Part shown: one piece after another, positions 19,263-57,861 of the stretch
Layout of the letters: each line of letters opens with the position of its first letter
Position numbering within the stretch: the stretch's first letter is position 1
Source of the DNA: Halorussus caseinilyticus
Lineage (GTDB): Archaea > Halobacteriota > Halobacteria > Halobacteriales > Haladaptataceae
Assembly: GCF_029338395.1 (NCBI RefSeq)
Contig: NZ_CP119809.1
Coordinates: 2,480,001-2,544,000 of the forward strand
Length of the DNA stretch: 64,000 nt
Direction of reading: 5' to 3'
Notes under the pieces: generated by a model
The model's database searches: none
What the model saw: the letters and a program-made list of their open reading frames with translations, nothing else
Told to the model about the DNA's origin: nothing
Program-made: the position numbers and the translations under genes

Positions 19263-19415
19263 CGGCGCGCGCTGGCGCGACCTCGTGTCGCGCCAGACCG
19301 CGCGAGGGACGACCGAACGACCGGAGGGAGTGAGGGAGTCGGTTGGGGAGGACGTGGCCCGCGGTAGCGGTGCAGTGCTGTGCGGTATGATTGGTTCAAG
19401 CCTGAAGCTAGCTTC
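19263..19415 (+). repeat. R1 structured repeat, copy A
   Basis: Starts GGCGCGCGCTGGCGC, with a hairpin TGGCGCGAC/GTCGCGCCA, then the variable arm (GACCGAACGACCGG...), then the conserved core GGTTGGGGAGG, GTGGCCCGCGG, GGTTCAAGCCTG and the terminal palindrome GAAGCTAGCTTC (19404-19415). It is followed by a 29-bp tandem repeat. Confidence 0.8.
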
Positions 19416-19422
19416 TTCTGTA

Positions 19423-19509
19423 CGTCCACCGACTCACTCACCTCCTCTCCACGTCCACCGATTTACTCACTTCCTCTCCACGTCTACCGACTCACTCACC
19501 TCCTCTCCA
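19423..19509. repeat. 29-bp tandem repeat, three copies
   Basis: Units at 19423, 19452 and 19481 (CGTCCACCGACTCACTCACC... ending CTCTCCA) differ by only a few transitions. They directly follow R1 copy A and are pyrimidine-rich on the same strand as the sequence downstream of other R1 copies. There are no spacers, so this is not a CRISPR. Confidence 0.85.
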
Positions 19510-19551
19510 CGTCCAGCGAGCCGCCGAGAACGCTACAGAGAAGACCGTTTA

Positions 19552-19690
19552 GAAAGCCCCCGCGCGCTCGGCTCCCGCGGCTCGGTGCGGTCCTCGGTCG
19601 TCACTGCGCTCCTCCCTGCGGTCCTTCCGTCGCCGGGGTTCGCCGAGCGCGCGGCCCCTTTATCCACCCGTGGCGGTTGGTCGGCCGAGC
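19552..19690 (-). repeat. R2 structured repeat, copy 4 (reverse)
   Basis: Read on the minus strand it has the head GCTCGGCCGACCAACC, then GTGGATAAAGGGGCCG, and closes GGGGGCTTTCTAA. The outer helix GCGCGCTCGGC/GCCGAGCGCGC (19562-19572 with 19642-19652) pairs perfectly but differs from copies 1-3 on both sides. Its inner part is divergent and resembles the variable arm of R1 copy D (GTCCTCGCTCCCTGCGGTC-like). Confidence 0.7.
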
Positions 19691-19851
19691 GTCCTCGTGG
19701 AGAGTTCCACCGAGCGCGTGCCGTGGCGGTGGAACGGGTAGAGCAAGACACACAATTCCTAAACATATATAGATAATGCTGAAAGAATCGTACAGAAACC
19801 TCCCGAACGCACACCGCTCGAAAGGCCACGGCGATACCGCGGATAATCGCC

Positions 19852-19858
19852 TTTTTAC
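19852..19858 (+). promoter_or_regulatory. TATA box of deoC
   Basis: TTTTTAC 25-31 bp before the ATG, the same arrangement as at cofH. Confidence 0.5.
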
Positions 19859-19882
19859 CGGCGCGACGTGTCACGTCCGAAC

Positions 19883-20524
19883 ATGAACGACAGCGAACTC
19901 GCCGCCGCAATCGACCACACCGTCCTCGGACCGGAGACGACCCTCGACGACGTGAAGCGCGTCCTCGACGAGGCCGACGAGTACGGCATGAACGCCTGCA
20001 TCCCGCCGTGCTACGTCGCCGAGGCCGCCGAACACGCCCCCGAAGTCACCCTCGCCACCGTCGTCGGGTTCCCCCACGGCCAGCACGCGACGGCGGCCAA
20101 GCGCGAGGAGGCCGTCGTCGCCTACGAGGACGGCGCGGACGAGTTGGACATGGTGATAAATATCGGCCGTCTGAAGGCCGGAGACGACGAGACCGTCCGC
20201 GCGGACATCGAAGAAGTCGTCGCCGCCGTCCCCGTCCCGGTGAAGGTCATCATCGAGACGGCCCTGCTCACCGACGACGAGAAGCGCCGGGCGTGCGAGG
20301 CCGCGGAGGAGGCCGACGCCGCGTTCGTCAAGACCTCCACCGGGTTCGCCGACGGCGGCGCGAAGGTCGAGGACGTGGAACTGATGAGCGAGTACCTGCC
20401 GGTCAAAGCCAGCGGCGGCGTCGGTAACTACGAGCAGGCGAAGGCGATGCTCGACGCCGGGGCCGAGCGCATCGGCGCGAGTTCGGGCGTCGAAATCGTC
20501 GAGGACTTCCGACGGAACTACTGA
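19883..20524 (+). CDS. deoC: Deoxyribose-phosphate aldolase
   Basis: 213 aa class I aldolase, the short archaeal form. Visible are [13 protein letters not shown] at the N-terminus, [17 protein letters not shown], the [15 protein letters not shown] motif, the Schiff-base lysine in AFVKTSTGF and the second lysine in VKASGGVGN. It splits 2-deoxyribose 5-phosphate to acetaldehyde and glyceraldehyde 3-phosphate in nucleoside breakdown. ATG 19883 fits the TATA spacing better than the upstream GTG. Confidence 0.95.
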
Positions 20525-20574
20525 GTCGTCGGTACGACCCGGAAGCGGGGACGGTCGGCGCGAGAGCGACGTTC

Positions 20575-21345
20575 TCAGTCGTCGTCGCCCGGCGACCCTT
20601 GGCTCTGTTCCTGCGACGACATGCTCGACGCGCTACTCCGGGCGGTGCCCGCCCAGCGGTTCATGTTGTTGGCGATGTAGTCTTTGCTCCCCCACCCGAA
20701 TCCGACGCCGATGGCAAGCGCGAGACCCGCCGCGAGACCCCACGCCAGCGCCTGCGCGAAGATGTACAGCAGTTCCACGTCGATACCCATCGTGTCGAGA
20801 CCGATGACGACCGCGGTGAAGTAGAGGAACATCCGGACGCCCGTGGCGAAGTACTGGGTGTACGCCGATTGGGCCGCCGCGCGGGTCCGGGTGATGGCGT
20901 CACCGATGAAGTCGGCGACGATGAACCCGCCGATGATGACCACCAGTCCGGCGATGAACGCCGGGAAATACGACACCGCCGTCGCTATCCACTCCGAGAG
21001 GATAGGGATAGCGAGCGTGTTCGCGGCCGCGAGGATTGCCAGCGCGTAGACGAACCACGCGGTCACCGACCCGAGGAAGTTCGACAGGGCGTCCCGTGAG
21101 TCGCCCATCATCCGACCGAGCGGGGTGTCGCGCGCGCTCCGGTCGAGTCCCGCTTTGTCGGCCACGCCGGAGACGACTCGCCCGAGGGCCTTGCCGACAA
21201 CCCACCCGATGAGCAGGATGATAATAGCGCCGACGAGTCGCGGAAGCGCGGCCACGATTTCCGAGAGGGCGTTACCGAGCCACTCCGGAAGGTTTCCGAA
21301 CAGTTCTCCGCCGTCCGCTTGCAGTAGTACGTATGGTGCGTTCAT
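20575..21345 (-). CDS. Small MscS-like mechanosensitive channel family protein
   Basis: 256 aa with about five transmembrane helices. The two repeated motifs (LPRLVGAIIILLIGWVVGKALGRVVSGVADKAGLD and YFPAFIAGLVVIIGGFIVADFIGDAI) are the conserved TM helix repeats of small MscS-related proteins. The C-terminal GFGWGSKDYIANNMNRW resembles the end of the MscS pore domain, and the large cytoplasmic cage is missing. Probably a membrane channel or a component of one. The tail is Ser- and Asp-rich. Confidence 0.75.
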   Translation of the reverse strand: MNAPYVLLQADGGELFGNLPEWLGNALSEIVAALPRLVGAIIILLIGWVVGKALGRVVSGVADKAGLDRSARDTPLGRMMGDSRDALSNFLGSVTAWFVYALAILAAANTLAIPILSEWIATAVSYFPAFIAGLVVIIGGFIVADFIGDAITRTRAAAQSAYTQYFATGVRMFLYFTAVVIGLDTMGIDVELLYIFAQALAWGLAAGLALAIGVGFGWGSKDYIANNMNRWAGTARSSASSMSSQEQSQGSPGDDD

Positions 21346-21785
21346 GGTTTCTCGCCGGGTAGACCGGCAGAAGATAGCAGGTGGTGGTCGTAGTTTGTTC
21401 TTGGCCGCATACCGGCCGGGGCGTCTCACCGCGTCGGCTCGGTTTTCAGAGCCCGAACATGCAAAATACGCGGCCGTGTAGGAATCTAGAACGGTCGCGC
21501 GAGCGGGGAGAAACAGGGGATGAAACGGGACGAAACGGACACGTAACTGATAGCTCAGCGGAAAAAACCCGACAGAGCGAGCGCGCCGTCCGCCGAACCG
21601 GTCAACGGGCCAGCGGCCGACCGAGCGCCATCGACTCGGACTCATTCCTCGGATTTCCGGAAGCTGTCGGGGTTACGTCGGCCAGCGTCGGCGACCCGAC
21701 GACTCGGCGGCGAACGTGTCCCGAGCGAAGGAGATGAAACGGGCGTTTTCTACTCGCCGCCGAGTCCGAAGAGAATCGGTCGGGA
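21346..21785. other. Intergenic stretch, no gene seen
   Basis: 440 bp between the channel gene start and the antiporter stop. Short open frames exist but none has codon use, composition or a start context that persuades me. I see no strong hairpin or repeat either. Confidence 0.35.
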
Positions 21786-22817
21786 CTACCCCACCAGACC
21801 GGTCACGCCCGCAGTCTCCAGCAGGAGCCACCCGACGAAAATCCCGTACGAGGCCAACAGCGCGTAGGCTTCCCCGCTCGTGAGTTCGAGGTCGGTCCGA
21901 GCCAGCGCGAAAAACAGCACCGTCGCCGCGACGAGAGCGGCCATCATCGGGACGGCCACCCCGAAGTTCACCGTGGTCGCGCCCGCGACCAACACGCCCG
22001 CGGGGAGCGCCACGAGCAGGTCGAAGACGTTGCTCCCGAGGACGTTGGCGAGACTCGTCACGCCCTCGCCCTTCTGCGAGGAGCGCACGCTGACGAACGT
22101 ATCGGGGAGGCTGGTGACGATTGCGACGACGGTCAGCCCCCAGAAGAAACTCGGGATGCCCAGTATCTCCTCGAAGTCGAGGACGGCCCCCACGAGTCCC
22201 TCGACGCCCACGACGATGACGACGAGGCTCACCGCCAGCGTCCCCCAGAGTCGCGCCGGGTTTGCGTCGGTGGTTCGCGCCTCGCGCAAGTCGCGCGTGT
22301 CGAGATACTGGATGAAGATGTAGAGTCCGTAGAGCGCGACCAGAAGCAGGGCGAGCGGCCGGGTCAGCGTCCCGGTCAGCGACCCGGCGGACGCGGGGAA
22401 GTAGATGACCGCGAACGAGAAGACGACCAGCGTGGCCGCTACCGCGACCATGTAAAACTGGGTCTCCTTGAACACGACCGCTCGGTCGGCTTCGAGGTTC
22501 TCGGTACCGGCCAGCGTCGAGACGGCCGGGATGACGAGGATGTTGAACACCGCCGACCCGACGATGGCCGCCGCTCCGAGTTCGAAGTCGCCGTGAACGA
22601 CGGTGGCGATAACGGTACTCGACAACTCCGGGAAACTGGACCCGACGGCGGCGACCACCGCCCCCTGCACGATGGCGGGCAGGCCGTAGTAGGCCGCCAA
22701 TTTCTCGGCGGCGTCTTCGAGCCAGATGCTCCCCTTCCAGATGATTGCAGTCGAGACGGCCGCGACGACGAGCGACAGCGCGAGCGACACAGCAAAGACC
22801 TGAACGCGGGGGGACAA
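21786..22817 (-). CDS. Ca2+/cation antiporter (CaCA family)
   Basis: About 343 aa with ten hydrophobic segments. The two alpha-repeats that form the ion site are clear: VGSSFPELSSTVIA...GSAVFNILVIP in the first half and VTSLPDTFVSVRSSQKGEGVTSLANVLGSNVFDLLVALPAG in the second. It exchanges Na+ or H+ for Ca2+. The longest frame opens with TTG; a GTG nine codons later (VSLALSLVVAAVS) is an equally good start. Divergent from the methylthiotransferase with only 65 bp between. Confidence 0.9.
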   Translation of the reverse strand: MSPRVQVFAVSLALSLVVAAVSTAIIWKGSIWLEDAAEKLAAYYGLPAIVQGAVVAAVGSSFPELSSTVIATVVHGDFELGAAAIVGSAVFNILVIPAVSTLAGTENLEADRAVVFKETQFYMVAVAATLVVFSFAVIYFPASAGSLTGTLTRPLALLLVALYGLYIFIQYLDTRDLREARTTDANPARLWGTLAVSLVVIVVGVEGLVGAVLDFEEILGIPSFFWGLTVVAIVTSLPDTFVSVRSSQKGEGVTSLANVLGSNVFDLLVALPAGVLVAGATTVNFGVAVPMMAALVAATVLFFALARTDLELTSGEAYALLASYGIFVGWLLLETAGVTGLVG

Positions 22818-22882
22818 GTCGGTTGGGGGTCGGGAAGATTCGTCGCGCTTTTGCCCGCGTAGCCGAAACGAACTGCCAGCGA

Positions 22883-24133
22883 ATGGCCCGGTATCACATC
22901 GAAACCTACGGTTGCACGTCGAACCGGGGCGAGAGCCGCCAGATAGAGCGGCGGCTACGGGACGCGGGCCACCACCGCGTCGAGGGACCCGACGAGGCGG
23001 ACGTGGCTATCCTCAACACCTGCACGGTGGTCGAGAAGACCGAACGCAACATGCTCCGGCGGGCCGAGGAACTCGAAGCCGAGACCGCAGACCTCATCGT
23101 GACTGGCTGTATGGCCCTCGCACAGGGCGAGCAGTTCCAACAGGCCGAGGTGGACGCCGACGTACTCCACTGGGAGGAGGTGCCCGAAGCGGTCACGAAC
23201 GGCGAGTGTCCGACGACGACGCCCGACGCCGACCCGGTGTTGGACGGCGTTATCGGCATCCTCCCCATCGCCCGCGGGTGCATGTCCGACTGTTCGTACT
23301 GCATCACCAAGCAGGCGACCGGCAAGATAGACTCGCCGCCCGTCGAAGAAAACGTCGAGAAGGCCCGCGCGCTGGTCCACGCGGGCGCGAAGGAGATACG
23401 GATTACCGGCCAAGACACCGGCGTCTACGGGTGGGACGACGGCGAGCGCAAACTCCACGAACTGCTCGACCGCATCTGCGACATCGAGGGCGACTTCCGG
23501 GTTCGGGTCGGGATGGCGAACCCGAAGGGCGTCCACGGCATCCGCGAGGAGTTGGCCGAGGTGTTCGCCGAGAACGAGAAGTTGTACAACTTCATCCACG
23601 CGCCGGTCCAGTCGGGGTCCGACGACGTGTTGGGCGACATGCGCCGCCAGCATCAGGTCTCCGAGTACGTCGAAATCGTGGAGACGTTCGACGAGTATCT
23701 GGACTACTGGACGCTCTCGACCGACTTCATCGTCGGTTTCCCGACCGAGACCGAGGAGGACCACGCCCGGAGCATGGCGCTGTTGGGCGAGACTCGCCCG
23801 GAGAAAATCAACGTCACCCGGTTCTCGAAACGACCCGGCACCGACGCCGCCGACATGAAGGGACTCGGCGGACAGGTCAAGAAGGACCGCTCGAAGGCGA
23901 TGACCGACCTGAAGATGGACGTGGTGGCCGACGCCTACGACTCGATGGTGGGCGAGACTCACGAAGTCCTCGTCGTCGAGGAGGGCACCGGCGACTCCGT
24001 GAAGTGCTACGACGAGGCCTACCGACAGGTGATTGTCCAGAACGCGCCCGACCGTGGCGTCGAAGTCGGCGACTTCGTGGACGTAGAGATTACCGGCCAC
24101 AGCACGGTGTACGCCTTCGGGGAACCAGTCTGA
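22883..24133 (+). CDS. tRNA t6A37 methylthiotransferase (MiaB-like, archaeal e-MtaB type)
   Basis: 416 aa. An N-terminal UPF0004 domain carries cluster cysteines C11, C47 and C76; the radical SAM cluster is C133, C137 and C140 (CMSDCSYC); GIREELAEVF, HAPVQSGSDDVLGDMRR and DFIVGFPTETEEDH follow, then a TRAM domain at the C-terminus (about 355-416). It adds a methylthio group to N6-threonylcarbamoyl-A37 in tRNA, giving ms2t6A. The start is the MARYHIETYGC ATG, not the longer frame upstream. Confidence 0.93.
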   Translation: MARYHIETYGCTSNRGESRQIERRLRDAGHHRVEGPDEADVAILNTCTVVEKTERNMLRRAEELEAETADLIVTGCMALAQGEQFQQAEVDADVLHWEEVPEAVTNGECPTTTPDADPVLDGVIGILPIARGCMSDCSYCITKQATGKIDSPPVEENVEKARALVHAGAKEIRITGQDTGVYGWDDGERKLHELLDRICDIEGDFRVRVGMANPKGVHGIREELAEVFAENEKLYNFIHAPVQSGSDDVLGDMRRQHQVSEYVEIVETFDEYLDYWTLSTDFIVGFPTETEEDHARSMALLGETRPEKINVTRFSKRPGTDAADMKGLGGQVKKDRSKAMTDLKMDVVADAYDSMVGETHEVLVVEEGTGDSVKCYDEAYRQVIVQNAPDRGVEVGDFVDVEITGHSTVYAFGEPV

Positions 24134-24187
24134 GAACGTAGTCGGGCAGGCCGACTGCGAGTGCGCGAAAAAGGGGAAGCGTCGAAG

Positions 24188-24322
24188 TTAGGGACCGCTG
24201 GTCGCGCCGCCCGAAGCGAGCGCCGGGGCGACCGTCGTCCAGAGCAGAATCAGCGACCACAGGGCGGTGACGGCTCGCGGGCGATTCGAAATCCACTGCC
24301 GAAGGGCTGATTTTTCGGACAT
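24188..24322 (-). CDS. DUF7503-like membrane microprotein (44 aa)
   Basis: MSEKSALRQWISNRPRAVTA, then one hydrophobic segment (about 20-36) ending ALASGGATSGP. This matches my memory of the small haloarchaeal family DUF7503 (a short charged head, one helix and a Gly/Ser/Pro tail). The last part looks like a signal-peptide cleavage region, so it may be exported or lie in the membrane. It has its own promoter, with GATATAA about 30 bp before the ATG. Confidence 0.6.
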   Translation of the reverse strand: MSEKSALRQWISNRPRAVTALWSLILLWTTVAPALASGGATSGP

Positions 24323-24350
24323 TACGTCAGAAATTCACCGGTCTAGTTTG

Positions 24351-24357
24351 TTATATC
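24351..24357 (-). promoter_or_regulatory. TATA box of the DUF7503-like gene
   Basis: GATATAA on the minus strand, 29-35 bp before its ATG, in a 50-bp AT-rich island. Confidence 0.45.
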
Positions 24358-24400
24358 TTTCTAAAATTTAGATAAGTAACCGTGGGGCGGGGTCGGACGG

Positions 24401-25327
24401 TCACTTCCGGGCCGGTTCCTCGTCCACCAGTTCGTCTATCGTCTCGTCGTCTTTCCACTCGCCGAGTTCCTTCGGGTCCACGTGGACGAACACGTCGTCT
24501 ACCTCGTCCAACTCGCGGATGGACTGCACGATGTCGGTCTCGATGTCGTGGGCCTCGAAGAGAGTGCGGTCGCCCTCGACTTCGATGTGGAGGCTCACGT
24601 CGATTTCCGGCCCGACGTAGTGGGCGATTACGTCGTGGGCACCCTCAACGTCGGGGTGGGTCAGCGCCCGCCGGACGATTTCGGCACGGAGGACCTCGGG
24701 CGGTGCGCTCCCGACGAGGTAGTCCACGTTATCTTGGACGATTTCGTACCCGGTGTAGAGGATACCGACCGAGACGACGCCCGCCGCGAGAGGGTCTAAC
24801 ACCGGCAGTCCGAGACCGGACCCGAGGACGCCGACCAGCGCCGCCCCCGCGGTCAAGATGTCGTTGCGGTTGTCCAGCGCCGTCGCCGTCAGCGCCGGGG
24901 AACTCGTCTGCTCGGCGGCGCGCAGACAGTACCGATACAGGCCGAACTTGACGGCGGCGGTTCCGACAAGCACGCCCACCGCGGCGAGAGAAGTTCCCCC
25001 GGCCCCGAACTCGCCCGAGAGGACGGAAGTGGTCGCTCGCCAGAGGACCGCCCCGCCCGCCGCGAACACGCCCACGGCGATGAACAGCGAGACGAACGGT
25101 TCGATGCGTTCGTGGCCGTGGGGGTGGCTGAAGTCCGGCGGACGGGTCGTCAGGTAGAGACCCGCGAGGATGACCACGCTGTAGGCGGAGTCGGCGAGGC
25201 TGTTGACCGCTTCTGACCCGACCGCGAGACTGCCGGTCGCCCACCAGACGCCGCCCTTGGCGACGACCAACAGCACGTTGGCCGCCAAGATGACGGCACC
25301 CACGCGACGGACGGTCCGTTGGCTCAT
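24401..25327 (-). CDS. Cation diffusion facilitator transporter
   Basis: 308 aa, six transmembrane helices then a cytoplasmic ferredoxin-like domain (about 205-300). The metal site residues appear in helix 2 (NSLADSAYS) and helix 5 (DNRNDILTA); FSHPHGHERIEPF between helices 2 and 3 is the family's His loop. The helix 2 site has Asn where zinc transporters have His, so the metal may be other than zinc (Mn or Fe are possible). It exports divalent metal from the cytoplasm. Confidence 0.9.
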   Translation of the reverse strand: MSQRTVRRVGAVILAANVLLVVAKGGVWWATGSLAVGSEAVNSLADSAYSVVILAGLYLTTRPPDFSHPHGHERIEPFVSLFIAVGVFAAGGAVLWRATTSVLSGEFGAGGTSLAAVGVLVGTAAVKFGLYRYCLRAAEQTSSPALTATALDNRNDILTAGAALVGVLGSGLGLPVLDPLAAGVVSVGILYTGYEIVQDNVDYLVGSAPPEVLRAEIVRRALTHPDVEGAHDVIAHYVGPEIDVSLHIEVEGDRTLFEAHDIETDIVQSIRELDEVDDVFVHVDPKELGEWKDDETIDELVDEEPARK

Positions 25328-25368
25328 CGGTCGCCTTTCGTACTCCCGAAGCAAGGTAGTGTCGTTCT

Positions 25369-25905: not shown

Positions 25906-26091
25906 GCCCTCTGGTTGGGGAGAGAGGGTTTTGCGTTCCCCGGTTCGTCTCGGTCGGTGGGCGAATCGCCCGCCGACCTCGGTACGCCGGGAACGTCCGG
26001 CCGAGAGGTCTCGGAGACCGATTTCTCCGCGCGAGACGACGCGAAGAGACAGACATCTTTTCAAGCGTTCGCCCTTTCAGGAGTTACACGA

Positions 26092-28777: not shown

Positions 28778-28782
28778 CGCCG

Positions 28783-32805: not shown

Positions 32806-32964
32806 GGCGCGCGCTGGCGCGGCCCGCAAGTGGCCGCGCCACCGTCGCGCGAGGGATGACCGAACGAGCGGAGCGAGTGAGGGAATCGGTTGGGGAGGGC
32901 GTGGCCCGCGGTAGCGGTGCGGGGCGGTCGCGGTTCTCATCGGTTCAAGCCTGAAGCTAGCTTC
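32806..32964 (+). repeat. R1 structured repeat, copy B
   Basis: GGCGCGCGCTGGCGC start; hairpin TGGCGCGGCC/GGCCGCGCCA, which differs from copy A on both sides; variable arm with CGAACGAGCGGAGCGAGTGAG; core GGTTGGGGAGG, GTGGCCCGCGGTAGCGG; end GAAGCTAGCTTC (32953-32964). It lies in a 536-bp divergent region; upstream of it is the AT-rich palindrome AAACAATTGTTT (about 32727). Confidence 0.8.
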
Positions 32965-40735: not shown

Positions 40736-40914
40736 GGCGCGCGCTGGCGCGGCGCACGAGCGCGCCGCGCCCATTCGCGCGAGGTCATCGGGAGCGAAGC
40801 GACCGATGGCTCGGCAGACGCGGGTTGTCTGCCGGGGGACGACTGAGCGAGTACCCGAAGGGTACGAGTGAAGGAGTCGGTTGGGGAGGGTGTGGCCCGC
40901 GGTCGCGGTGCGTT
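40736..40914 (+). repeat. R1 structured repeat, copy C, truncated at the 3' end
   Basis: GGCGCGCGCTGGCGC start (a partial extra copy of the head lies at about 40706); hairpin GGCGCGGCGC/GCGCCGCGCC; the variable arm has two extra perfect hairpins (GGCAGAC/GTCTGCC and GTACCC/GGGTAC); core GGTTGGGGAGG, GTGGCCCGCGG. It lacks GGTTCAAG and the terminal palindrome and passes straight into R2 copy 3. Confidence 0.75.
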
Positions 40915-40923
40915 TGGGTGGAC

Positions 40924-41040
40924 TGAAAGGGGCCGCGCGCTCGCGCTTGCGTGGTCGTCTCAGCGCGGCCACTATTTCGCGCGCGTAGTTCTACGCGCGC
41001 GAAATATCCCGCTGAGCGACCGCGAGCGCGCGGGGGCTTT
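40924..41040 (+). repeat. R2 structured repeat, copy 3
   Basis: AAAGGGGCCG start without the usual GGAT and without the GCTCGGCCGACCAACC head. Helices: GCGCGCTCGCG 40935-40945 with 41021-41031; CTCAGCG 40959-40965 with 41010-41016; and a perfect 16-bp apical stem 40973-40988 with 40991-41006. Closes GGGGGCTTTCGA. It is the cleanest single hairpin of the family. Confidence 0.75.
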
Positions 41041-44266: not shown

Positions 44267-44425
44267 GAAGCTAGCTACTTCCGACACCGATGAGAACCGC
44301 CCCGCACCGCCACCGCAGGCCACGTCCTCCCCAACCGACTGCGGTCCTCGCTCCCTGCGGTCGCTGTGGTCCTCGTCCCTCGCGCGACGATGGCGCGGCC
44401 ACTCCGGGCCGCGCCAGCGCGCGCC
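44267..44425 (-). repeat. R1 structured repeat, copy D (reverse)
   Basis: Minus strand: GGCGCGCGCTGGCGC head, hairpin GGCGCGGCC/GGCCGCGCC, variable arm GACCGCAGGGAGCGAGGAC, core GGTTGGGGAGGACGTGGCC, then a diverged tail in which GGTTCAAGCC is lost but the end GTAGCTAGCTTCC remains. It lies between two convergent genes. Confidence 0.7.
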
Positions 44426-47941: not shown

Positions 47942-48080
47942 GTCGCCGCCTCACCCCGGTCGAATCGGTCTTGCATAGTTAGTTCCACGCTGTACAAAAT
48001 AGCCGCTCGACGGCTATTTGATTTCCGCTATAGAGTCGAAGCCGTCGTTCGGGGCCGTCGCAGACTGACCGACAAGATGC

Positions 48081-48312
48081 GCTCGGCCGACCAACCGGCA
48101 GGGTGCGCCCGGCCAATCAGCCGACAGGGTGCGCCCGGCCAATCAGCCGACAGGGTGCGCCCGGACGACCAACCGACAGGGGTGGATAAAGGGGCCGCCC
48201 GCTCGCGGGCCGCAGGCCCGTGGTCGTCTCTGTGGGCCACTATTCGAGTGAACGAACGCAGTGAGTGAGCGAGAATATCCCGCAGAGCGACCGCGAGCGG
48301 GCGGGGGCTTTC
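48081..48312 (+). repeat. R2 structured repeat, copy 2, with a 26-bp tandem repeat inside
   Basis: Head GCTCGGCCGACCAACC (48081-48096); a 26-bp unit (CCAATCAGCCGACAGGGT...) at 48087, 48113 and 48139 plus a partial fourth; then GTGGATAAAGGGGCCG and the hairpin. Helices: GCCCGCTCGCG 48197-48207 with 48292-48302; CTCTGTGGG 48228-48236 with CCCGCAGAG 48279-48287 (one G-T pair); TATTC with GAATA. An extra hairpin GGGCC-GCA-GGCCC bulges from the 5' side. Closes GGGGGCTTTCGA. Confidence 0.78.
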
Positions 48313-49270: not shown

Positions 49271-49421
49271 GAAGCTAGCTTCAGGCTTGAACCAATCAAG
49301 ACCGCACCGCCCCGCACCGCCACCGCACCTCACGCCTCCCCAACCTCGGCGGCCGCGTCCGCGGCCGCCGTCCCTCGCGCGGACGGGCGCGACACGCTCC
49401 GCGGTCGCGCCCGCACGCGCC
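49271..49421 (-). repeat. R1 structured repeat, copy E (reverse)
   Basis: Minus strand: GGCGCGTGCGGGCGC head; hairpin GGGCGCGAC/GTCGCGCCC; variable arm reduced to one perfect hairpin GGCGGCCGCG/CGCGGCCGCC; core GGTTGGGGAGG; end GGTTCAAGCCTG and GAAGCTAGCTTC (49271-49282 on the plus strand). Shortest copy, lying between nucS and the kinase. Confidence 0.8.
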
Positions 49422-49518
49422 GAATTTGTACGCCGAGACGTGCGTAGCAATCTCTAAGGAATATCCACTCGTGCAAAAGAAAGAAAAATATTGCCGAAAC
49501 CATCGTTTTTCTGTCTCA

Positions 49519-49546: not shown

Positions 49547-49556
49547 CCGCGGCGAC

Positions 49557-51494: not shown

Positions 51495-51500
51495 CGACCC

Positions 51501-52688
51501 ATGAGTCACGACAGCGCGGACCGCGACGACACCGACGAACTCGCCGACCTCGCGGCCGAACTCGTCGCCATCCCGACCGAGAACCCGCCGGGCGACGAGC
51601 GACCCTGCGCCGAGTTCGTCGTGGACTGGTTCGCCGAGCGCGACATCGACGCCAGTCTCGTAGAGAAACCGAGCGCCGAGCGAGCGCAAGCAGTCGCGCA
51701 AGTCGGCGACCCCGACGCGGGTCCCACGCTCGTCCTCAACGGCCACCTCGACGTGGTGCCCGCGGGCGACCCCGACCAGTGGAGCCACGACCCCTTCGCG
51801 GGGACCGTCGAGGACGGGCGACTCTACGGCCGGGGGAGCGCCGACATGAAGACCAACGTCGCCGTCGCCATGCTCGCGGTCCGGGACCTCGCAGAAGAAA
51901 TCGAGGAGGGCAATCTCGACGGGTCGCTGGTCTTCCACGGCGCGATGGGCGAGGAGACCGGCGACCCCGGCACCCGGACGCTCATCGAGGAAGGCTACGG
52001 CGGCGATTTGGCGGTCGTGCTGGAACCCACCGACTTCCGGGTCGGCACGAGCGCGAAGGGGGTCGCCACCTTCCGGGTCGGCGTCTCGGGGTCTGCCTCC
52101 CACGCGAGTCGCCCCGACCAAGGCGTCAACGCCATCGACGCCGCTCGGCCCGTCCTCGCGGCGGTAGAGGAGTACGACCGTCGCGTGCGCGAGCGCACGG
52201 ACCCGCTCGTCGGGCGGGCGTACGCGACCGTCACCGAGTTCGAGGCCGGGACCGACTCGAACATGGCGGTGCTGGCCGACCGCGCGGAGTTCCTGCTGGA
52301 CCGGCGCGTCCTGCCCGACGAGACCTTCGCGGAAGTCGAGGACGAAATCGAGACACTGCTCGCGGGCGTAGCGCGCGAGTCGGGCGTCGAGACCGACCTG
52401 ACGCTGGTCCAGCACTACGCTTCCGCCGGAATTTCGCCGGACCATTCCCTCGCCGAGCGATTCCGGGGACTCTCGGCGGAGTTGGCCGACGCGCCCGCCG
52501 ACCCGTGGGGGTTGGAGGCCGCGACCGACGCCCGGGAGTTCGTCGCGCGCGGGACGCCAGCGATTATCTGGGGACCGGGCGAACTCGCGCAGGCCCACAC
52601 CGCCGACGAACACGTCGAGTTGGACGACGCCGCGCTCGGCCTGCAAATTCTGACGGAGGCCGCGAGGGGAGTGCTGTCGGAGGGTTAG
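51501..52688 (+). CDS. M20 family ArgE/DapE-type deacylase
   Basis: 395 aa. Metal ligands in VLNGHLDVVPAGDPDQW (His, Asp), GRGSADMKT (Asp), HGAMGEETGDPGT (Glu-Glu) and the dimerisation domain SASHASRPDQGVNAIDAA; TADEHVELDDA provides the last His. It hydrolyses an N-acyl or succinyl amino acid, perhaps in Lys/Arg synthesis. Its stop overlaps the stop of the convergent gene by four bases. Confidence 0.93.
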   Translation: MSHDSADRDDTDELADLAAELVAIPTENPPGDERPCAEFVVDWFAERDIDASLVEKPSAERAQAVAQVGDPDAGPTLVLNGHLDVVPAGDPDQWSHDPFAGTVEDGRLYGRGSADMKTNVAVAMLAVRDLAEEIEEGNLDGSLVFHGAMGEETGDPGTRTLIEEGYGGDLAVVLEPTDFRVGTSAKGVATFRVGVSGSASHASRPDQGVNAIDAARPVLAAVEEYDRRVRERTDPLVGRAYATVTEFEAGTDSNMAVLADRAEFLLDRRVLPDETFAEVEDEIETLLAGVARESGVETDLTLVQHYASAGISPDHSLAERFRGLSAELADAPADPWGLEAATDAREFVARGTPAIIWGPGELAQAHTADEHVELDDAALGLQILTEAARGVLSEG

Positions 52689-53404
52689 AGCGACACGCCG
52701 TCGAGACTCGCGTCGAGGTCGGCCACGTAGTCGTTGAACGACTCCACGAACGCGGGCACGTCCTCGGCGAGGTTGCGCACGTCGGGGGCCGACGGCGGTT
52801 GATACTGCGAGAGGAGGTAGATGCCGCCCTCGCCGCCGACCCGGAGGTAGGACGCGCCGCCGTCCTCCCACTTGAGTTCCCAGCGGTTGCCCGCGACTCG
52901 GGCCGAAAAGGACCCGTAGTCGCCGCCCTCGTAGCGGGCGAGTTGGTGGGCCATCCGGTCGGCAACGTCGCGGACGCGCCCGAGGATTCGGTCGCGCTCG
53001 GCCACGACGGACTCGGTGGACGCCACGTCGGGGAAGTCGGCGGGAACGCCGTCCAGCACGCCGTCCAGCGACCGGACGTAGCGGTTGAACGCCGCGACGA
53101 AGGCGTCGTAGTCGGTCATCGCGTCGGCGAGGTCCTCGGGGTCGGGTGGCTGGTGGGTCGAGACGACGTAGGTCTCGGCCTTGCGGCCCTCGAACAGGAG
53201 AAACTGGAGGTCGCCCGCCTCGTACTTGACGGTCCACTCGCCGCCGTCGGTCTCGAAGGTCCGCTTGCCGTAGTCGCCGCCCTGAAGCAGGGCGAGTTCG
53301 CGGGCAATTTTTCCGGCGTGGTCGCGGACCCGCGAGACCACTTCGTCCCGGCGCTCGGCCGGGTCTTCGGCGGATTCGACGGCGAGGTCGAACTGCTCTG
53401 TCAT
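52685..53404 (-). CDS. Internally duplicated protein of unknown function
   Basis: 239 aa made of two copies of a 105-residue unit: residues about 19-124 (DEVVSRVRDHAGKIARELALLQGGDYGKRTFE...STHQPPDPEDLADAM...) and 134-239 (DRILGRVRDVADRMAHQLARYEGGDYGSFSAR...LSQYQPPSAPDVRNLAED...). The shared GGDYG, Y/H-QPP and helical ends are clear. The unit looks like an alpha/beta domain; the second copy has a W-rich sheet. Acidic and soluble, function unknown. Confidence 0.75.
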   Translation of the reverse strand: MTEQFDLAVESAEDPAERRDEVVSRVRDHAGKIARELALLQGGDYGKRTFETDGGEWTVKYEAGDLQFLLFEGRKAETYVVSTHQPPDPEDLADAMTDYDAFVAAFNRYVRSLDGVLDGVPADFPDVASTESVVAERDRILGRVRDVADRMAHQLARYEGGDYGSFSARVAGNRWELKWEDGGASYLRVGGEGGIYLLSQYQPPSAPDVRNLAEDVPAFVESFNDYVADLDASLDGVSL

Positions 53405-53507
53405 CGGTGACTCTCGGGACGCGACCGACAAAAGGTGCGTGACCTGCGCGTCGGGGGTCGTCGTGGGTTACTCTCCCTCGGCGCGCGGACTCAACCTTCT
53501 CCACCCC

Positions 53508-53692
53508 GGCGCGTGCGGGCGCGACCCGCGAGTGGTCGCGCCCATCCGCGCGAGGGACGAGTATCGCAGGGAGAAGCGACCGGAGGGAGCGACGACCGAG
53601 AAACGCAGTCGGTTGGGGAGGCATGTGGTCCGCGGGAGCGGTGCGGGGCGGTGCTGTGCGGTTCTGATTGGTTCAAGCCTGAAGCTAGCTTT
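53508..53692 (+). repeat. R1 structured repeat, copy F
   Basis: GGCGCGTGCGGGCGC head; hairpin GGGCGCGACC/GGTCGCGCCC; variable arm GAGTATCGCAGGGAGAAGC; core GGTTGGGGAGGCATGTGG; end GGTTCAAGCCTG, GAAGCTAGCTTT (53681-53692). Pyrimidine-rich DNA with CACCAAACAC repeats follows. Confidence 0.8.
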
Positions 53693-53825
53693 TCTCTATC
53701 TCTCCCGTTCCCACGCCCGAAGCTACCTCACCAAACACCTCTCACCAAACACGTCCTCCACCCGAAACACCACCTCCAAAGAAGCGAACGACACCCTCAC
53801 GGTCCATCAAGCATCACCTACGCCC

Positions 53826-54278
53826 ATGCGAGTCAGCGTCATCGGCGGAAGCACAGTCACCGACGAGCAGGCCGCGAGCGCCGAGGAAGTCGGCCGACTC
53901 CTCGCCGACCGGGGTCACACCCTCGTCTGCGGCGGGTTGGGCGGCGTGATGGAGGCCGCCTGCCGCGGCGCGAGCGAGGCGGGCGGACGGACCGTCGGCA
54001 TCCTCCCCGGCGAGGACCGCGCCGCGGCCAACCCCTACGTGGACACCGCCGTCGCCACCGGACTCGGCCACGCCCGGAACGCGCTGGTGGTGCTGAACGG
54101 CGACGCCGTGATTGCGGTGGACGGCGGCGTCGGCACCCTCTCGGAACTCGGCTTCGCGGGCGTCTACGACCGGCCCGTCGCCGGACTCGGAACCCACGAC
54201 GCGCCGGGCGTCGAAGCCGTCGCCTCGCCCGCCGACGCGGTGACGTTCGTGGAGTCGGCCACCGACGAAGACGTTTGA
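53826..54278 (+). CDS. TIGR00725-like (LOG/lysine decarboxylase-type) protein
   Basis: 150 aa. VIGGSTVTDEQAASAEEVGRLLADRGHTLVCGGLGGVMEAACRGASEAGGRTVGILPGEDR and VDTAVATGLGHARNALVVLNGDAVIAVDGGVGTLSELGFA show the Rossmann-like nucleotide-monophosphate-binding fold of the LOG relatives. The GGxGT motif is VDGGVGTLSE. It may be a nucleotide-processing or cytokinin-type phosphoribohydrolase; function unproven. Confidence 0.85.
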   Translation: MRVSVIGGSTVTDEQAASAEEVGRLLADRGHTLVCGGLGGVMEAACRGASEAGGRTVGILPGEDRAAANPYVDTAVATGLGHARNALVVLNGDAVIAVDGGVGTLSELGFAGVYDRPVAGLGTHDAPGVEAVASPADAVTFVESATDEDV

Positions 54279-54345
54279 GCAATAGAAATAAGCCTTATAG
54301 GTATCTTTAGATGGCTAAAGAAACGGATTTCAATCGTTAGGACGA

Positions 54346-54376
54346 GTCCGACCGACGCGGTGCGCGTCGGTCGGAC
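54346..54376 (+). terminator. Perfect 14-bp hairpin after the LOG-like gene
   Basis: 54346-54359 pairs exactly with 54363-54376 around a GTG loop. It stands about 70 bp after the stop and 90 bp before the tRNA, so it may end the previous transcript. Confidence 0.5.
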
Positions 54377-54438
54377 GGCGCGACGACGGCGGGGTTCGAG
54401 CGTCGCGAACCGGGGCCGGTCAGCCAAATCCGGAAGGA

Positions 54439-54446
54439 TTAAACTT
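54439..54446 (+). promoter_or_regulatory. TATA-like box of tRNA-Pro
   Basis: TTAAACTT, 24-31 bp upstream of the tRNA. Confidence 0.45.
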
Positions 54447-54469
54447 CGGACGCGCTTTGGTTTACTTGC

Positions 54470-54542
54470 GGGCCGGTGGGGTAGCTTGGTATCCTTCGGC
54501 CTTCGGGTGGCCGTAACCGCGATTCGAATTCGCGCCGGCCCA
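54470..54542 (+). tRNA. tRNA-Pro (anticodon CGG)
   Basis: Full cloverleaf by eye: acceptor GGGCCGG/CCGGCCC with discriminator A; D arm GGGT/ATCC; anticodon stem CGGCC/GGCCG around the loop TTCGGGT, anticodon CGG reading CCG; variable loop TAAC; T stem CGCGA/TCGCG with loop TTCGAAT. CCA is not encoded, as usual for haloarchaea. No intron. Confidence 0.95.
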
Positions 54543-54762
54543 CTACCAACCCGCAACTTCTGACGGAGACGACGAACGGCGTACGGATTGGCGTATCGAG
54601 TCCGGTCGCCGTGGATGTGCTGCGCATAGTTGACAGTTACTTGTCACTCCCGAGCAGTCGGTCGCGGCTTCGTTCACCGCCGCGTCAGCGCATCAGGACG
54701 GGTATTTTTCCCTTATATATGGCAGTAAATTCAAGTATTTGCAACCGAAACCTCCGCGGAGA

Positions 54763-56073
54763 ATGACGGCGAAGACGCCCTCCGGACCCCGGAAACTGCC
54801 CATCATTGGGAACACCCACCAATGGGTGAAAGGCCCGTGCGAGTTCAAAGAGCGCGCGGCCGAGTACGGTCGCGTGGTGAACTACAAAGTCATCGGCATG
54901 GACTCGTACATGCTCACGGAACCCGAAGACATCGAACGAGTCCTGATGAACACCGGAGACGAGTTTCACAAACACGAGCAAATCAAAGAGCAACTCCGAG
55001 ACGCAATCGGTACGGGTCTGTTTACCAGCGAGGGCGAACTGTGGGAGCGCCAGCGAGAAGCCATGAAGCCCGCGTTCTATCTCGAACACACCAAAAACTA
55101 CGCACAGAGTATGGTCGGGCGGGCGTCCGACGCCGCCGACTGCTGGCACGACGGCGAGACCATCGGTCTCCGACGCGAGATGCAACAGGTGACGCTGGAA
55201 ATCCTCCTCGAAGCGATGCTCGGTGCCGACATCGACATCGCCGACCGAGGGATGTACGATGCGGTCGACGACCTGCTCGCGGTCCTCGAACCCAGTAAAC
55301 AACCGATTACGATGCTCGCGCCGGATTGGGCACCGATTCCCTTCCTGCGTCGCCGCAAGGAGGCAATCGAACACCTCGAATCGCAGGTCTACGACATCCT
55401 CGAGTCGCGCAGGACCAGCGACGAGGACCGGAGCGACCTCATGTCGATGTTGCTGGCGTCCGACGAGGAGATGGACGACGAGCAAATCCGCGACGAGATG
55501 ATGACGTTCCTGCTGGCGGGCCACGAGACGAGCGCGCTCACGTTGACCTACTCCCTTCACCTCCTGTCGCAGAATCCGGACGTGGCGCGGCGACTCCGCG
55601 AGGAACTCGACGAGGTGATAGACGGGAAACCCGAGTTCGAGGACGCGCTGTCGCTCTCGTACACCGAGTCGGTCGTGAAAGAGGCGATGCGGTTGTACCC
55701 ACCGGCCCACGAACTGCGGCGCGCGCCGAAGACCGACGTGACCTTCGGCGACTATCTCGTTCCCGAAGGCTCGCTCGTCATCCTGCCGACGTGGGTCCTC
55801 CACCGCGACGAGCGCTTCTGGGACGACCCCGAGACGTTCCGACCGGAGCGCTGGGAGGAACAGGGGGACCGCCCCGAGTTCGCCTACTTCCCGTTCGGCG
55901 GCGGGCCGCGTCGGTGCATCGGCCAGCAGTTAGCCACCCTCGAAGCGAAGTTGGTCCTCGCGACGCTCCTGAAAGACTGGGAGTTCGAGCGCGAGTACGA
56001 CGAAATAGAGCTGTCGGCCGGGCAGACGCTCCAGCCGAAAGGTGACGTGGAGATGACCGTCCACCGCCGCTGA
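54763..56073 (+). CDS. Cytochrome P450
   Basis: 436 aa, soluble. I-helix AGHETSALT, ExxR in VVKEAMR, PERF-type FRPERW, heme loop FPFGGGPRRCIGQQLA with the thiolate Cys. The start PRKLPIIGNTHQWVKGPCEF resembles the haloarchaeal CYP174 group and CYP102-like P450s. Substrate unknown (fatty acids or carotenoids are usual). No redox partner gene is near. Immediately followed by a broken P450 fragment. Confidence 0.94.
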   Translation: MTAKTPSGPRKLPIIGNTHQWVKGPCEFKERAAEYGRVVNYKVIGMDSYMLTEPEDIERVLMNTGDEFHKHEQIKEQLRDAIGTGLFTSEGELWERQREAMKPAFYLEHTKNYAQSMVGRASDAADCWHDGETIGLRREMQQVTLEILLEAMLGADIDIADRGMYDAVDDLLAVLEPSKQPITMLAPDWAPIPFLRRRKEAIEHLESQVYDILESRRTSDEDRSDLMSMLLASDEEMDDEQIRDEMMTFLLAGHETSALTLTYSLHLLSQNPDVARRLREELDEVIDGKPEFEDALSLSYTESVVKEAMRLYPPAHELRRAPKTDVTFGDYLVPEGSLVILPTWVLHRDERFWDDPETFRPERWEEQGDRPEFAYFPFGGGPRRCIGQQLATLEAKLVLATLLKDWEFEREYDEIELSAGQTLQPKGDVEMTVHRR

Positions 56074-56088
56074 CGACTCCGAACACCC

Positions 56089-56635
56089 GCGGAGACGGCG
56101 CTCACCTACGCGTGGTACGAACTGGGCCGTCGCCCCGAAGTCCGGAAGTCGCTGGCCGAAGAAATCCGCGAAGTCGTCGGCGACGGCTCGCCCGTCGCCG
56201 ACGACTTCGAGGCGCTGGGGCAGGTCCAAAACGTCGTGGACGAGACGCTTCGACTCTACCCTCCGGCGTGGGCGGTCAACCGCGAGGCGACCGAACGGGT
56301 GACCCTCGGCGGGTGCGAGATTCCGGAGGGCGCGCAGTTGATGATTCCCCAGTGGGTCCTCCACCGCGACGGGCGATTCTAGGACGACCCCGAGACGTTC
56401 GACCCCGACCGCTGGACCCGCGAGGGCGACCGGCCGGAGTACGCCTACCCCGTTCAGCGGCGGCCCGCGCCACTGCATCGGGATGCGGTTCGCCCGCCTC
56501 GAACTGGTGATGGCGCTGGCGACGATGGTCGGTCGGGTGGACCTCAACGTGACCACCGACGGACCGCTGGCGTTTCGGCCGTCGCTGACGCTCCGGCCGA
56601 CCGTCGATATTGAGGCGACCGTCCGTCGTCGGTAA
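56089..56635 (+). pseudogene. Remnant of a second cytochrome P450 (3' half)
   Basis: Starts 16 bp after the intact P450 inside the I-helix (ETALTYAWYELGRRPEVRKSL), keeps ExxR (VVDETLRLYPPAW) and PQWVLHRDGRF, then has an in-frame TAG where Trp is expected (56380), and a two-base deletion at about 56450 before the heme loop (repaired reading FSGGPRHCIGMRFARLELVMAL). The end LRPTVDIEATVRRR and stop are in another frame. The N-terminal half is absent. The intact and remnant genes are diverged, so this is an old decaying paralogue rather than a fresh duplicate. Confidence 0.88.
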
Positions 56636-56816
56636 CGCACTCGAACTGTACCGGTAGCGCGTCCGAATATTTCCGGCAGTCGCGGCGAACAACGTTTTAT
56701 GTTTTCGGTGGGACCGACGAACGACGACACATGGCGACTGCCACAGGCGTAGCAATCGACCGCCGCCGGACGACGCGCACGATTCCGAGGGACACCCACA
56801 GCACCGCCGCCGAACC

Positions 56817-57584
56817 ATGATGCGCGGCGACGGACGCGACGAGAAACGGGCCGACCCCGAAGACGGATTCGAACCCGCCGAACCAATCGACGCCGACCGT
56901 GAGCGCAGGGCCTCAACGGACACCACCGAACCGACCGCCGACGCCGAAAAGTCCGCACCCGAAGGCGACGACGGCCGACTCTCGATTCCGCTCGAAACCA
57001 TCGCGGTCCTGAACTGGCTCGGCGAAGTCGGCGTCGATGGCGTCGAGTCCCGACTCCGGAAGGTCGCGGGCGACGACCTGAGCGTCGAGACCGAACAGGT
57101 CAAAATCGGCTACGCGGGACCGGAGACGATTCTCGACCAGTTCGGCGTCGAGGACCGCGCCGGTGCGCGCGTCCGGATGCGCAAGCCAGTCGCCGGAACC
57201 GTCTTGGTGCTGTTCCCGGTCAAGAGCGCGAACCGCGCGGCGTCGCTGATGCTCCAACGCGCAGTCGCGGACGCGGCGTCGGTCGTCGCCACGGAGATGG
57301 GCCGGGACGCCCTGACCGAACTCTGTAACGTGATGGCGAACGGCTTCGTGGACGAGTGGGCCGAGACGTTCGATACCTCCATCGACACCGGCGCGCCCGT
57401 GGCGGTCCAGAACCCCGAGATGACGCTCGTCCACCACGTCTTCTCGGTCTCGGACGTTGGTCTCTACCTCACCTCGCGGTTCCGAGTCGCCGAGGACATC
57501 GACGCGACCATCTTCGTTTTCCCCGGCGAAGCGGAGTTCGTCTCCGAGATTTCGCGGGTGAGTCCCGAGGTCATCGACCGCTGA
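56817..57584 (+). CDS. cheC: CheC-like chemotaxis phosphatase
   Basis: 255 aa. An acidic N-terminal extension of about 55 residues, then a CheC/CheX-fold domain. The phosphatase motif ELCNVMANGFVDEWAE (ExxN) at about 164-180 is the one clear active site; the second motif expected of CheC is not evident. It would dephosphorylate CheY-P during adaptation. No other chemotaxis genes are in the window. Confidence 0.82.
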   Translation: MMRGDGRDEKRADPEDGFEPAEPIDADRERRASTDTTEPTADAEKSAPEGDDGRLSIPLETIAVLNWLGEVGVDGVESRLRKVAGDDLSVETEQVKIGYAGPETILDQFGVEDRAGARVRMRKPVAGTVLVLFPVKSANRAASLMLQRAVADAASVVATEMGRDALTELCNVMANGFVDEWAETFDTSIDTGAPVAVQNPEMTLVHHVFSVSDVGLYLTSRFRVAEDIDATIFVFPGEAEFVSEISRVSPEVIDR

Positions 57585-57594
57585 GGGACATCGC

Positions 57595-57680
57595 GGTGGA
57601 CTGGTTCGGGGGAGTGGATTTGTGACCGGTGGATGAGTTCGGGGGAGTGGATTTGTGACCGGTAGATGAGTTCGGGGGAG
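57595..57680. repeat. 33-bp tandem repeat, two and a half copies
   Basis: Units at 57595 and 57628 and a partial third from 57661. The partial unit stops exactly where the terminal palindrome of R1 copy G begins, so the array abuts the element end, as the 29-bp array does at copy A. Confidence 0.85.
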
Positions 57681-57861
57681 CTAGCTTCAGGCTTGAACCA
57701 ATCAAAACCGCCCCGCACAGCACCGAACCGCCACCGCGAACCACACGCCTCCCCAACCGACTGCGTTTCTCGGTCGTCGCTCCCTCCGGTCGCTTCTCCC
57801 TGCGATACTCATCCCTCGCGCGGATGGGCGCGACCACTCGCGGGTCGCGCCCGCACGCGCC
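57677..57861 (-). repeat. R1 structured repeat, copy G (reverse)
   Basis: Minus strand: GGCGCGTGCGGGCGC head; hairpin GGGCGCGACC/GGTCGCGCCC; variable arm nearly identical to copy F; core GGTTGGGGAGG; GGTTCAAGCCTG and GAAGCTAGCTCC. Situated between two convergent genes. Confidence 0.8.

What the first reader, a model, noticed from the sequence alone, without database searches (positions are those of the whole stretch)
19263..57861. R1: seven copies of a covarying structured repeat ending in GAAGCTAGCTTC
Copies lie at 19263, 32806, 40736, 44267, 49271, 53508 and 57677. Every copy has a GGCGCG(C/T)GC head, a first hairpin, a variable arm, the core GGTTGGGGAGG, then GGTTCAAGCCTG and a 12-bp palindrome (copy C lost this end). 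The hairpin sequences differ: TGGCGCGAC/GTCGCGCCA, TGGCGCGGCC/GGCCGCGCCA, GGGCGCGACC/GGTCGCGCCC, GGCGCGGCGC/GCGCCGCGCC. Each stays fully paired, so the fold is selected. Copies sit in divergent, convergent and tandem gaps in both orientations, which argues against a simple terminator. I know no named family like it. It could be a nonautonomous element or a small RNA.
Basis: seen in the sequence. Interest (0 to 1): 0.85.

Follow-up and report, generated by a model that had tools for sequence, protein, structure and literature searches.

The report
Archaeal folded repeat, many scattered copies
A salt-loving archaeon carries at least about 150 scattered copies of a short element whose folded shape has been kept while its letters changed; it looks like a mobile element that borrows an unknown enzyme to spread, and relatives of it occur in many related microbes.

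Summary
The repeat is real and is the local sample of a large family. All 7 copies exist. The host genome, a Halorussus species, gives 156 covariance-model matches, a lower bound. Matches occur in 46 of 117 genomes of the order, host included.

The fold is well supported. With a register set by flanking anchors, pairs (2,2), (6,7) and (8,9) of arm 2 exceed all 1000 shuffles. Hairpin 1 of other genomes pairs in 81% with itself, 25% with permuted partners. Covarying pairs alternate with conserved G.A-type mismatches.

Copies lie between genes, orientation neutral, without a recurrent neighbour gene. Counts run from 0 to 113 (capped) in 15 congeners. Locus-specific minisatellites adjoin the 3' end in 25 of 93 copies against 1 of 78 element-free windows.

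Best reading: a non-autonomous mobile element acting as a folded single strand. Y1 transposase is absent from the host, RVT_1 from all 33 genomes tested, so the helper is unknown. It resembles REPs and PATEs but fails defining tests. Mobility is inferred; no clean empty site was found. Transcription was not testable.

The parts
19264..19412 (+). R1 copy 1 (head to AGCTAGC), tandem gap
   Evidence: 154.8 bits
19422..19519 (.). locus-specific 29-bp tandem repeat, 3.4 units, just beyond the 3' end of copy 1
32806..32961 (+). R1 copy 2, divergent gap
   Evidence: 144.3 bits
40736..40915 (+). R1 copy 3: 5' module with extra hairpins, no AGCTAGC tail; tandem gap
   Evidence: two partial hits, 41.3 and 37.7 bits
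40916..40975 (+). second repeat module (R2) GGGTGGACTGAAAGGGGCCG...CACTAT fused to copy 3; end assigned by eye
44270..44425 (-). R1 copy 4, variant tail; convergent gap; element also in this gap in G006
   Evidence: (122.8 bits)
49274..49421 (-). R1 copy 5; arm 2 replaced by a perfect GC hairpin; tandem gap; element in the same gap and orientation in G004, G007 and G023
   Evidence: (108.2 bits)
53508..53689 (+). R1 copy 6, divergent gap; left boundary of a 3.8-kb segment inverted relative to relatives
   Evidence: (181 bits)
57594..57680 (.). locus-specific 33-bp tandem repeat, 2.6 units, abutting the 3' end of copy 7
57680..57861 (-). R1 copy 7, 94% identical and inverted to copy 6; right boundary of the inverted segment; convergent gap
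   Evidence: (175.7 bits)

Best explanation
R1 is a family of short (about 150-230 bp in the host) non-autonomous mobile elements of haloarchaea. Anatomy (shown): helix P1 (GGCGCGyG / CGyGCG) around hairpin 1, whose sequence is free but kept paired; then arm P2, where covarying Watson-Crick pairs alternate with G.A, A.G and A.A mismatches; then an almost invariant core GGyTGGGGAGGnnGwGG; then a changeable 3' module (a GCGGT-rich stretch ending in AGCTAGC in Halorussus, or a GGGACTGAAAGGGGCCG module in several other genera). Mechanism (inferred): one strand, folded as single-stranded DNA or as RNA, is recognised through the 5' module by a protein encoded elsewhere, and its 3' end is joined to a pyrimidine-rich stretch between genes; different tail types have spread in different lineages. 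The 3' junction is a hot spot for tandem duplication of the adjoining 20-50 bp, either through the insertion reaction or through replication slippage beside the fold. Inverted copies also serve as recombination sites. The helper is not identified; a Y1 transposase (IS200/605 or REP type) and reverse transcription are made unlikely.
For: 156 matches in the host, on a 3.48-Mb and a 427-kb contig; 136 of the 150 listed are at least 120 nt. Sharp ends: before GGCGCG, position -2 is C/T in 100% and -1 is C in 92% of 83 heads; after CTAG the first six positions are 84-97% pyrimidine in 69 tails aligned on that motif. 92 of 93 copies overlap no called gene by more than 50 nt. Counts of 0, 7, 30-35, 67 and 91-113 in 15 of the 17 congeners held (110 candidates scored per genome). 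The same gap is filled in some relatives, decayed in G006 (by eye), empty in G003, G009 and G022. Tail types differ by lineage: GGyTCrAGCCTG in 61 of 93 host copies and 0 of 19 copies of G010 and G005; GGTACCGGGA 0 of 93 against 9 of 19. Covariation. Strand asymmetry, P1 counted without letter anchors inside the helix: 23 G.T against 2 A.C of 360 cells in 60 host copies, 26 against 0 of 228 cells in 38 copies of other genomes; hairpin 1: 27 G.T against 11 A.C of 1035 cells (p = 0.014). 3' minisatellites: 25 of 93 against 1 of 78 background windows, p = 7e-7. The segment between copies 6 and 7 has the opposite orientation in 9 of 9 relatives holding both markers.
Against: No clean empty site was found, so insertion ends and target duplication are not shown directly; where the element is missing from the gap of copy 5, the whole gap is short (printed stretches of 28, 44 and 144 bp), which fits deletion as well as a site never occupied. 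No helper was identified and no gene recurs beside copies. The closest host pair is 94% identical and may owe that to the inversion, so recent transposition is not shown. Elements in the same gap and orientation in several relatives also fit old, retained elements. The host's main tail type occurs in G003, G004, G007, G009, G024 and G025 too, so tails are lineage-restricted, not species-specific, and could spread by gene conversion. One copy folds no better than shuffled sequence (z 0.22 as RNA, -0.33 as DNA). The 100 nt before the head also show some repeats (10 of 93, p = 0.012 against background).
Confidence: 0.58

Rival explanations
1. A host-useful structured RNA family (small RNAs or UTR elements) kept by selection on the transcript.
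For: Covariation with G.T tolerated much more than A.C on one strand; core kept across genera; same gap and orientation in some relatives.
Against: No orientation preference in tandem gaps (24 against 19); no promoter-like bias in 40 nt before the head; no match in the congener G008; 0 to 113 matches within one genus.
Confidence: 0.16
2. A PATE or REP relative: left over from, or moved by, an IS200/605-type Y1 transposase that acts on folded single-stranded DNA.
For: No terminal inverted repeats seen, hairpins near the ends, strand-specific fold, high copy, 3 tail-to-tail and no head-to-head pairs among 7 close pairs, CTAG at the 3' end recalling the GTAG tag of REPs (passages of PMC3733652).
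Against: PF01797 has no match in the host nor in 9 other element-rich genomes (G002, G009, G010, G017, G020, G047, G050, G101, G113); it does occur in 7 element-bearing ones (G004, G005, G012, G014, G019, G021, G025) and in 10 without R1 matches. The TnpB elements of the host whose 3' end I could recognise (4 of 8 loci, two of them near-identical) end in ...GGAGGATGTCAA, unlike R1.
Confidence: 0.13
3. A chromosomal binding site for an architectural, replication or segregation protein.
For: Spread over the chromosome (3-10 of the 80 examined copies per 250 kb) and intergenic.
Against: Also on the 427-kb contig; 0 to 113 matches between congeners that share gene order around the window; structure is strand-specific.
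Confidence: 0.08
4. Paired arms are kept by a mutational process (template switching that perfects palindromes), not by selection on a fold.
For: Hairpin 1 of the host is nearly pure Watson-Crick (569 of 585 cells).
Against: P2 keeps G.A, A.G and A.A mismatches that such a process would remove, while the pairs between them covary.
Confidence: 0.05

Closest known systems
PATEs and SMRs of Haloquadratum walsbyi (passages of PMC3119063)
   Same: haloarchaeal, short, high copy, no transposase gene; PATEs have no terminal inverted repeats, palindromes near the ends and no target duplication
   Different: PATE ends are related to IS605-type transposons; R1 showed no such match to the TnpB loci of its genome, the host has no PF01797 match, and R1 has a multi-helix 5' module kept across genera
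REP / BIME sequences and TnpA-REP (RAYT) (passages of PMC3733652; abstract of PMC8266576; abstracts in the listing)
   Same: over 100 copies per genome, outside genes, folded single strand, a tetranucleotide tag at one end, inverted pairs
   Different: REPs are 20-40 bp palindromes tagged GTAG; R1 is about 150-230 bp with several helices, ends in CTAG, and the host has no PF01797 match
Non-autonomous Helentrons / HINE, DINE-1 (passages of PMC4067079)
   Same: palindromes near the 3' end, insertion preference for sequence of biased composition (T-rich there), tandem repeats in some copies; canonical Helitrons make no target duplication and end in CTRR
   Different: eukaryotic, with subterminal inverted repeats; their Rep-helicase partner (recalled) was not searched for here
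MITEs
   Same: short, no coding capacity
   Different: no terminal inverted repeats seen here; target duplication could not be judged

Membership tests
PATE (IS605-derived) | no terminal inverted repeats; palindromes near the ends | tested here: met
   by inspection, GGCGCGyGC and AGCTAGCT ends are not complementary; 5' hairpin 1 and 3' GCTAGC palindrome
PATE (IS605-derived) | ends similar to IS605-type transposons | tested here: not met
   8 TnpB loci of the host searched with the model and blastn: the one strong match (L205) is a separate antisense copy; the true ends of 4 of the 8 were not recognised
PATE / REP | Y1 (PF01797) transposase available in the genome | tested here: not met
   0 matches in the host and 9 other element-rich genomes; matches in 7 other element-bearing genomes
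REP (GTAG-tagged) | 20-40 bp palindrome with terminal GTAG | tested here: not met
   length 148-233 bp in the copies; ends in CTAG
MITE | terminal inverted repeats | tested here: not met
   none seen at 83 heads and 69 tails, by inspection
MITE | target duplication | tested here: inconclusive
   no empty site with both flanks
SINE-like retroelement | reverse transcriptase in the genome | tested here: not met
   PF00078 in 0 of 33 genomes; rings in 3 of 14 controls
Helitron-like rolling-circle element | TC...CTRR ends, insertion between A and T | tested here: not met
   3' CTAG fits CTRR, but the flanking bases are C on the left (92%) and C on the right (89%), not A and T
Helitron-like rolling-circle element | Rep-helicase helper | not tested
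   no search made
Rfam RNA family | score above the gathering threshold | tested here: not met
   0 matches in the window; in 7 other loci 4 matches, all below gathering
transcribed small RNA | stable transcript with precise ends | not testable with these tools
   no RNA-seq available

The most novel reading that the evidence does not exclude
An archaeal counterpart of SINEs or HINEs that spreads as a folded single strand: a 5' recognition fold with G.A pairs kept across the order, joined to exchangeable 3' tails, moved by a class of enzyme that is neither a Y1 transposase nor a reverse transcriptase, and leaving a newly made minisatellite at its 3' junction.
Probability: 0.24. Interest if true: 0.87.

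Novelty: new variant of a known kind. Interest (0 to 1): 0.63.

Why it matters
The family occupies many intergenic gaps of many haloarchaea and no gene is listed under the annotated plasmid matches shown (that table lists no RNA or repeat features). It is a case where fold rather than sequence persists. It makes a concrete question testable: which enzyme moves a folded element in genomes without PF01797 or RVT_1? Halorussus offers natural contrasts (no match in G008, 7 in G022, 91 or more in 8 of 15 congeners). Copies mark an inversion breakpoint and adjoin minisatellites, so they shape genome structure.

Tried and rejected
IS200/605 helper: PF01797, absent from the host. Reverse transcriptase: PF00078, 0 of 33. 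TnpB omega-RNA: recognised TnpB 3' ends share by eye only GGGGAGGATGT with some R1 cores; treated as coincidence. A linked gene: all-against-all comparison of 323 neighbouring proteins gave 9 clusters, none over 4 loci, several of them contig-end duplicates; none looked like a transposase by eye, and they were not annotated. Terminator or UTR: orientation neutral. Replication-strand bias: strands random along C1, inconclusive because origins are unknown. Phage origin: no match of one copy in phage records. Rfam. Literature: core and module strings as text gave 6 papers, unrelated by title; keyword searches listed no title or abstract that I recognised as this family; the library holds open-licence PMC papers only. 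Of the Haloferax volcanii genome paper I saw five passages, none on such repeats. RNAalifold structures on MAFFT alignments misplaced arm 2; I used anchor-based counts instead.

Results to weigh: a first P1 count (26 G.T, 0 A.C) was biased because its search patterns fixed letters inside the helix; one search replaces it. Blastn with one copy gave matches in 18 of 21 genomes, including 24 in G016 and one each in G015 and G018, where the covariance model gave none; I did not examine these, and arm-2-like repeats are possible. Rows dropped: anchors kept 76 of 93 host copies and 57 other copies, 77 distinct arms of 133 for P2, 60 of 93 host and 38 of 41 other copies for P1. The y-r table uses the 46 of 76 and 42 of 57 arms that begin GAy and end in RTC. 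The P2 anchor requires C or T at 5' position 2. The shuffles do not correct for shared descent. The type table sorts arms by pairing at some of its own positions and so leans towards the structure. Copies from other genomes are the better-scoring ones, not a random sample. Gene calls come from my own simple caller, checked with Pfam on 17 window translations. Without three contig-end duplicates the minisatellite count is 24 of 90.

On review the confidence went from 0.60 to 0.58 and the novel case from 0.25 to 0.24, because tails proved lineage-restricted rather than species-specific.
Full report
OBSERVATION. The seven copies are present. Their core is identical in 7 of 7; GGTTCAAGCCTG is exact in 5 of 7 and GAAGCTAGCTTC in 3 of 7. 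The 5' half is the constant part and the tail the changeable part. The copy at 40736 continues into a different repeat module. The window lies on a 3.48-Mb contig of a 4.39-Mb genome. Plasmid and genome records with names place the family's closest matches in Halorussus.

FAMILY SIZE. Blastn finds 46 matches in the same genome. A covariance model from 23 copies finds 156 at E up to 0.01, with 150 of 7244 first-look candidates scored; 136 of the 150 listed are at least 120 nt. Across the order 46 of 117 genomes and 16 of 48 genera match at E up to 1e-4, the host and its congeners included. In 15 of the 17 congeners held, counts at E up to 1e-6 are 0 (G008), 7 (G022), 30, 33, 35, 67, 67, 91, 93, 95, 96, 99, 108, 110 and 113, with 110 candidates scored per genome. 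Six genomes of other families, included because one search had found nothing in them, again have none.

STRUCTURE. P1 pairs GGCGCGyG with CGyGCG around hairpin 1. Hairpin 1 differs widely between genera. With the partner slid over 0-6 nt, at least 7 of the first 8 positions pair in 98% of 65 host hairpins (73% with permuted partners) and in 81% of 53 hairpins from other genomes (25% permuted). P2 follows. With the register fixed by the flanking GAy and the core, pairs (2,2), (6,7) and (8,9) form standard pairs in 97%, 81% and 79% of 77 distinct arms, against shuffled means of 80%, 51% and 32%, and 0 of 1000 shuffles reach the observed values; pair (5,6) also exceeds all shuffles (70% against 56%). 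The other eight positions are invariant, mismatched or do not exceed every shuffle. The y-r pair gives C-G 30, T-A 12, T-G 4, C-A 0 in host copies (Fisher p = 5e-8) and 6, 23, 13, 0 elsewhere (p = 0.005). P2 has two forms: one with a bulged A and A.G, A.A and G.A mismatches (49, 44 and 48 of 54 distinct arms), one with G.A/A.G recurring every four pairs (25 of 25 at the first two sites, 21 of 25 at the third). Unconstrained RNA folding of one copy gives P1, hairpin 1, and P2 as short steps separated by internal loops, and pairs GGTTGG with the AGCTAGC tail, but its energy is no lower than that of shuffled sequence (z 0.22); the other strand and DNA parameters are likewise unremarkable (z -0.16 and -0.33).

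WHICH STRAND. Counted without letter anchors inside the helix, P1 has 23 G.T and 2 A.C among 360 cells in 60 host copies (33 copies without the outer anchor left out), and 26 against 0 among 228 cells in 38 copies from other genomes. Hairpin 1 has 27 G.T against 11 A.C among 1035 cells. This points to the element's + strand acting as a single strand. It does not distinguish RNA from DNA, and shared descent inflates the counts.

PLACES. Of 93 copies with gene calls, 92 overlap no called gene by more than 50 nt; the exception is at a contig-end duplicate. In element orientation the neighbours are convergent 30, co-directional 24, divergent 19, anti-directional 19, one undetermined. Against intergenic length in the window, a small reference, convergent gaps are somewhat enriched (p about 0.005); orientation in tandem gaps is neutral (24 against 19, p = 0.54); strands along the chromosome are random (43 runs, 39.8 expected).

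ENDS AND MINISATELLITES. Heads follow YC; tails end CTAG followed by a pyrimidine tract. An exact 12-mer repeated at a distance of 12-69 occurs in the first 100 nt beyond the 3' end in 25 of 93 copies, in the last 100 nt before the head in 10 of 93, and in 1 of 78 element-free intergenic windows. Periods centre near 30 bp and units differ between loci. Arrays of the same kind are visible by eye behind some copies of G010 and G005. Any mechanism has to explain this.

CHANGE BETWEEN SPECIES. Four gaps of the window were compared with stretches from 13 relatives. The gap of copy 5 holds an element in the same orientation in G004, G007 and G023; in G024 an element lies beside the left neighbour, but the right neighbour has moved. 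G006 has a decayed remnant (by eye), and G003, G009 and G022 have nothing recognisable there. The gap of copy 4 holds an element in G006 but not in G003 or G025. The segment between copies 6 and 7 has the opposite orientation in 9 of 9 relatives that carry both the 53.8-kb and the 57.9-kb marker; the two copies are inverted and 94% identical, so recombination between them is the simplest cause. Tail types are lineage-restricted: GGyTCrAGCCTG is the host's main type (61 of 93) and occurs in loci of six congeners, but in none of the loci held of G010 and G005, where a GTACCGGGA type is common. The exact host 24-mer was found once outside the host in genome contigs, in Halorussus aquaticus.

MECHANISM. 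High and volatile copy number, sharp ends, lineage-restricted tails, neutral orientation and a strand-specific fold together suggest a non-autonomous mobile element recognised as a folded single strand. Shown: family, fold, ends, copy-number differences, minisatellites. Inferred: mobility, a helper acting in trans, preference for pyrimidine-rich targets. PF01797 and PF00078 were searched and are lacking in the host. A Y1 helper could have been lost or be too divergent, and other helpers (rolling-circle Rep, serine or DDE enzymes) were not searched.

COMPARISON. The family works like REPs and PATEs and, in its tandem repeats and composition preference, recalls non-autonomous Helentrons, but a defining feature of each was tested and not met (membership table). 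I found no name for it in Rfam or in the literature searches listed, which cover open-licence texts only.

Noticed in passing
40916-40975 (+); L170, L179, L187, L184 behind R1 cores; L093, L045, L153 alone: A second dispersed module, GGGTGGGACTGAAAGGGGCCG...CACTAT/CCCTATC, occurs alone (10 distinct places) and behind the R1 core (14) in the loci held; the 17-mer GGRACTGAAAGGGGCCG is in 17 of 59 genomes of the order, with 59 matches in G020, 38 in G010 and 2 in the host.
   Followed up: partly
53.8-57.6 kb: A 3.8-kb segment inverted in the host relative to 9 of 9 relatives with both markers, bounded by inverted R1 copies 6 and 7.
   Followed up: partly
L013, L015, L031 and the copy at 40736: Optional extra hairpins, such as GGAGCGAAGCGACGG and CGGCAGACGCGGGTTGTCTGCCG, sit between P1 and the core in some copies (by eye).
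   Followed up: no
48068-48181: An intergenic 26-bp tandem repeat of 4.4 units with no R1 match beside it.
   Followed up: no
5003-5352: Long hexamer arrays: CGTCTC 11 units and ACGACA 47 units, both 100% matched.
   Followed up: no
host C2:174997/175203, C2:257986/258224, C1:2479235/2479386: Tail-to-tail inverted pairs of R1 (3 of 7 close pairs; 4 same-direction, none head-to-head within 300 bp).
   Followed up: partly
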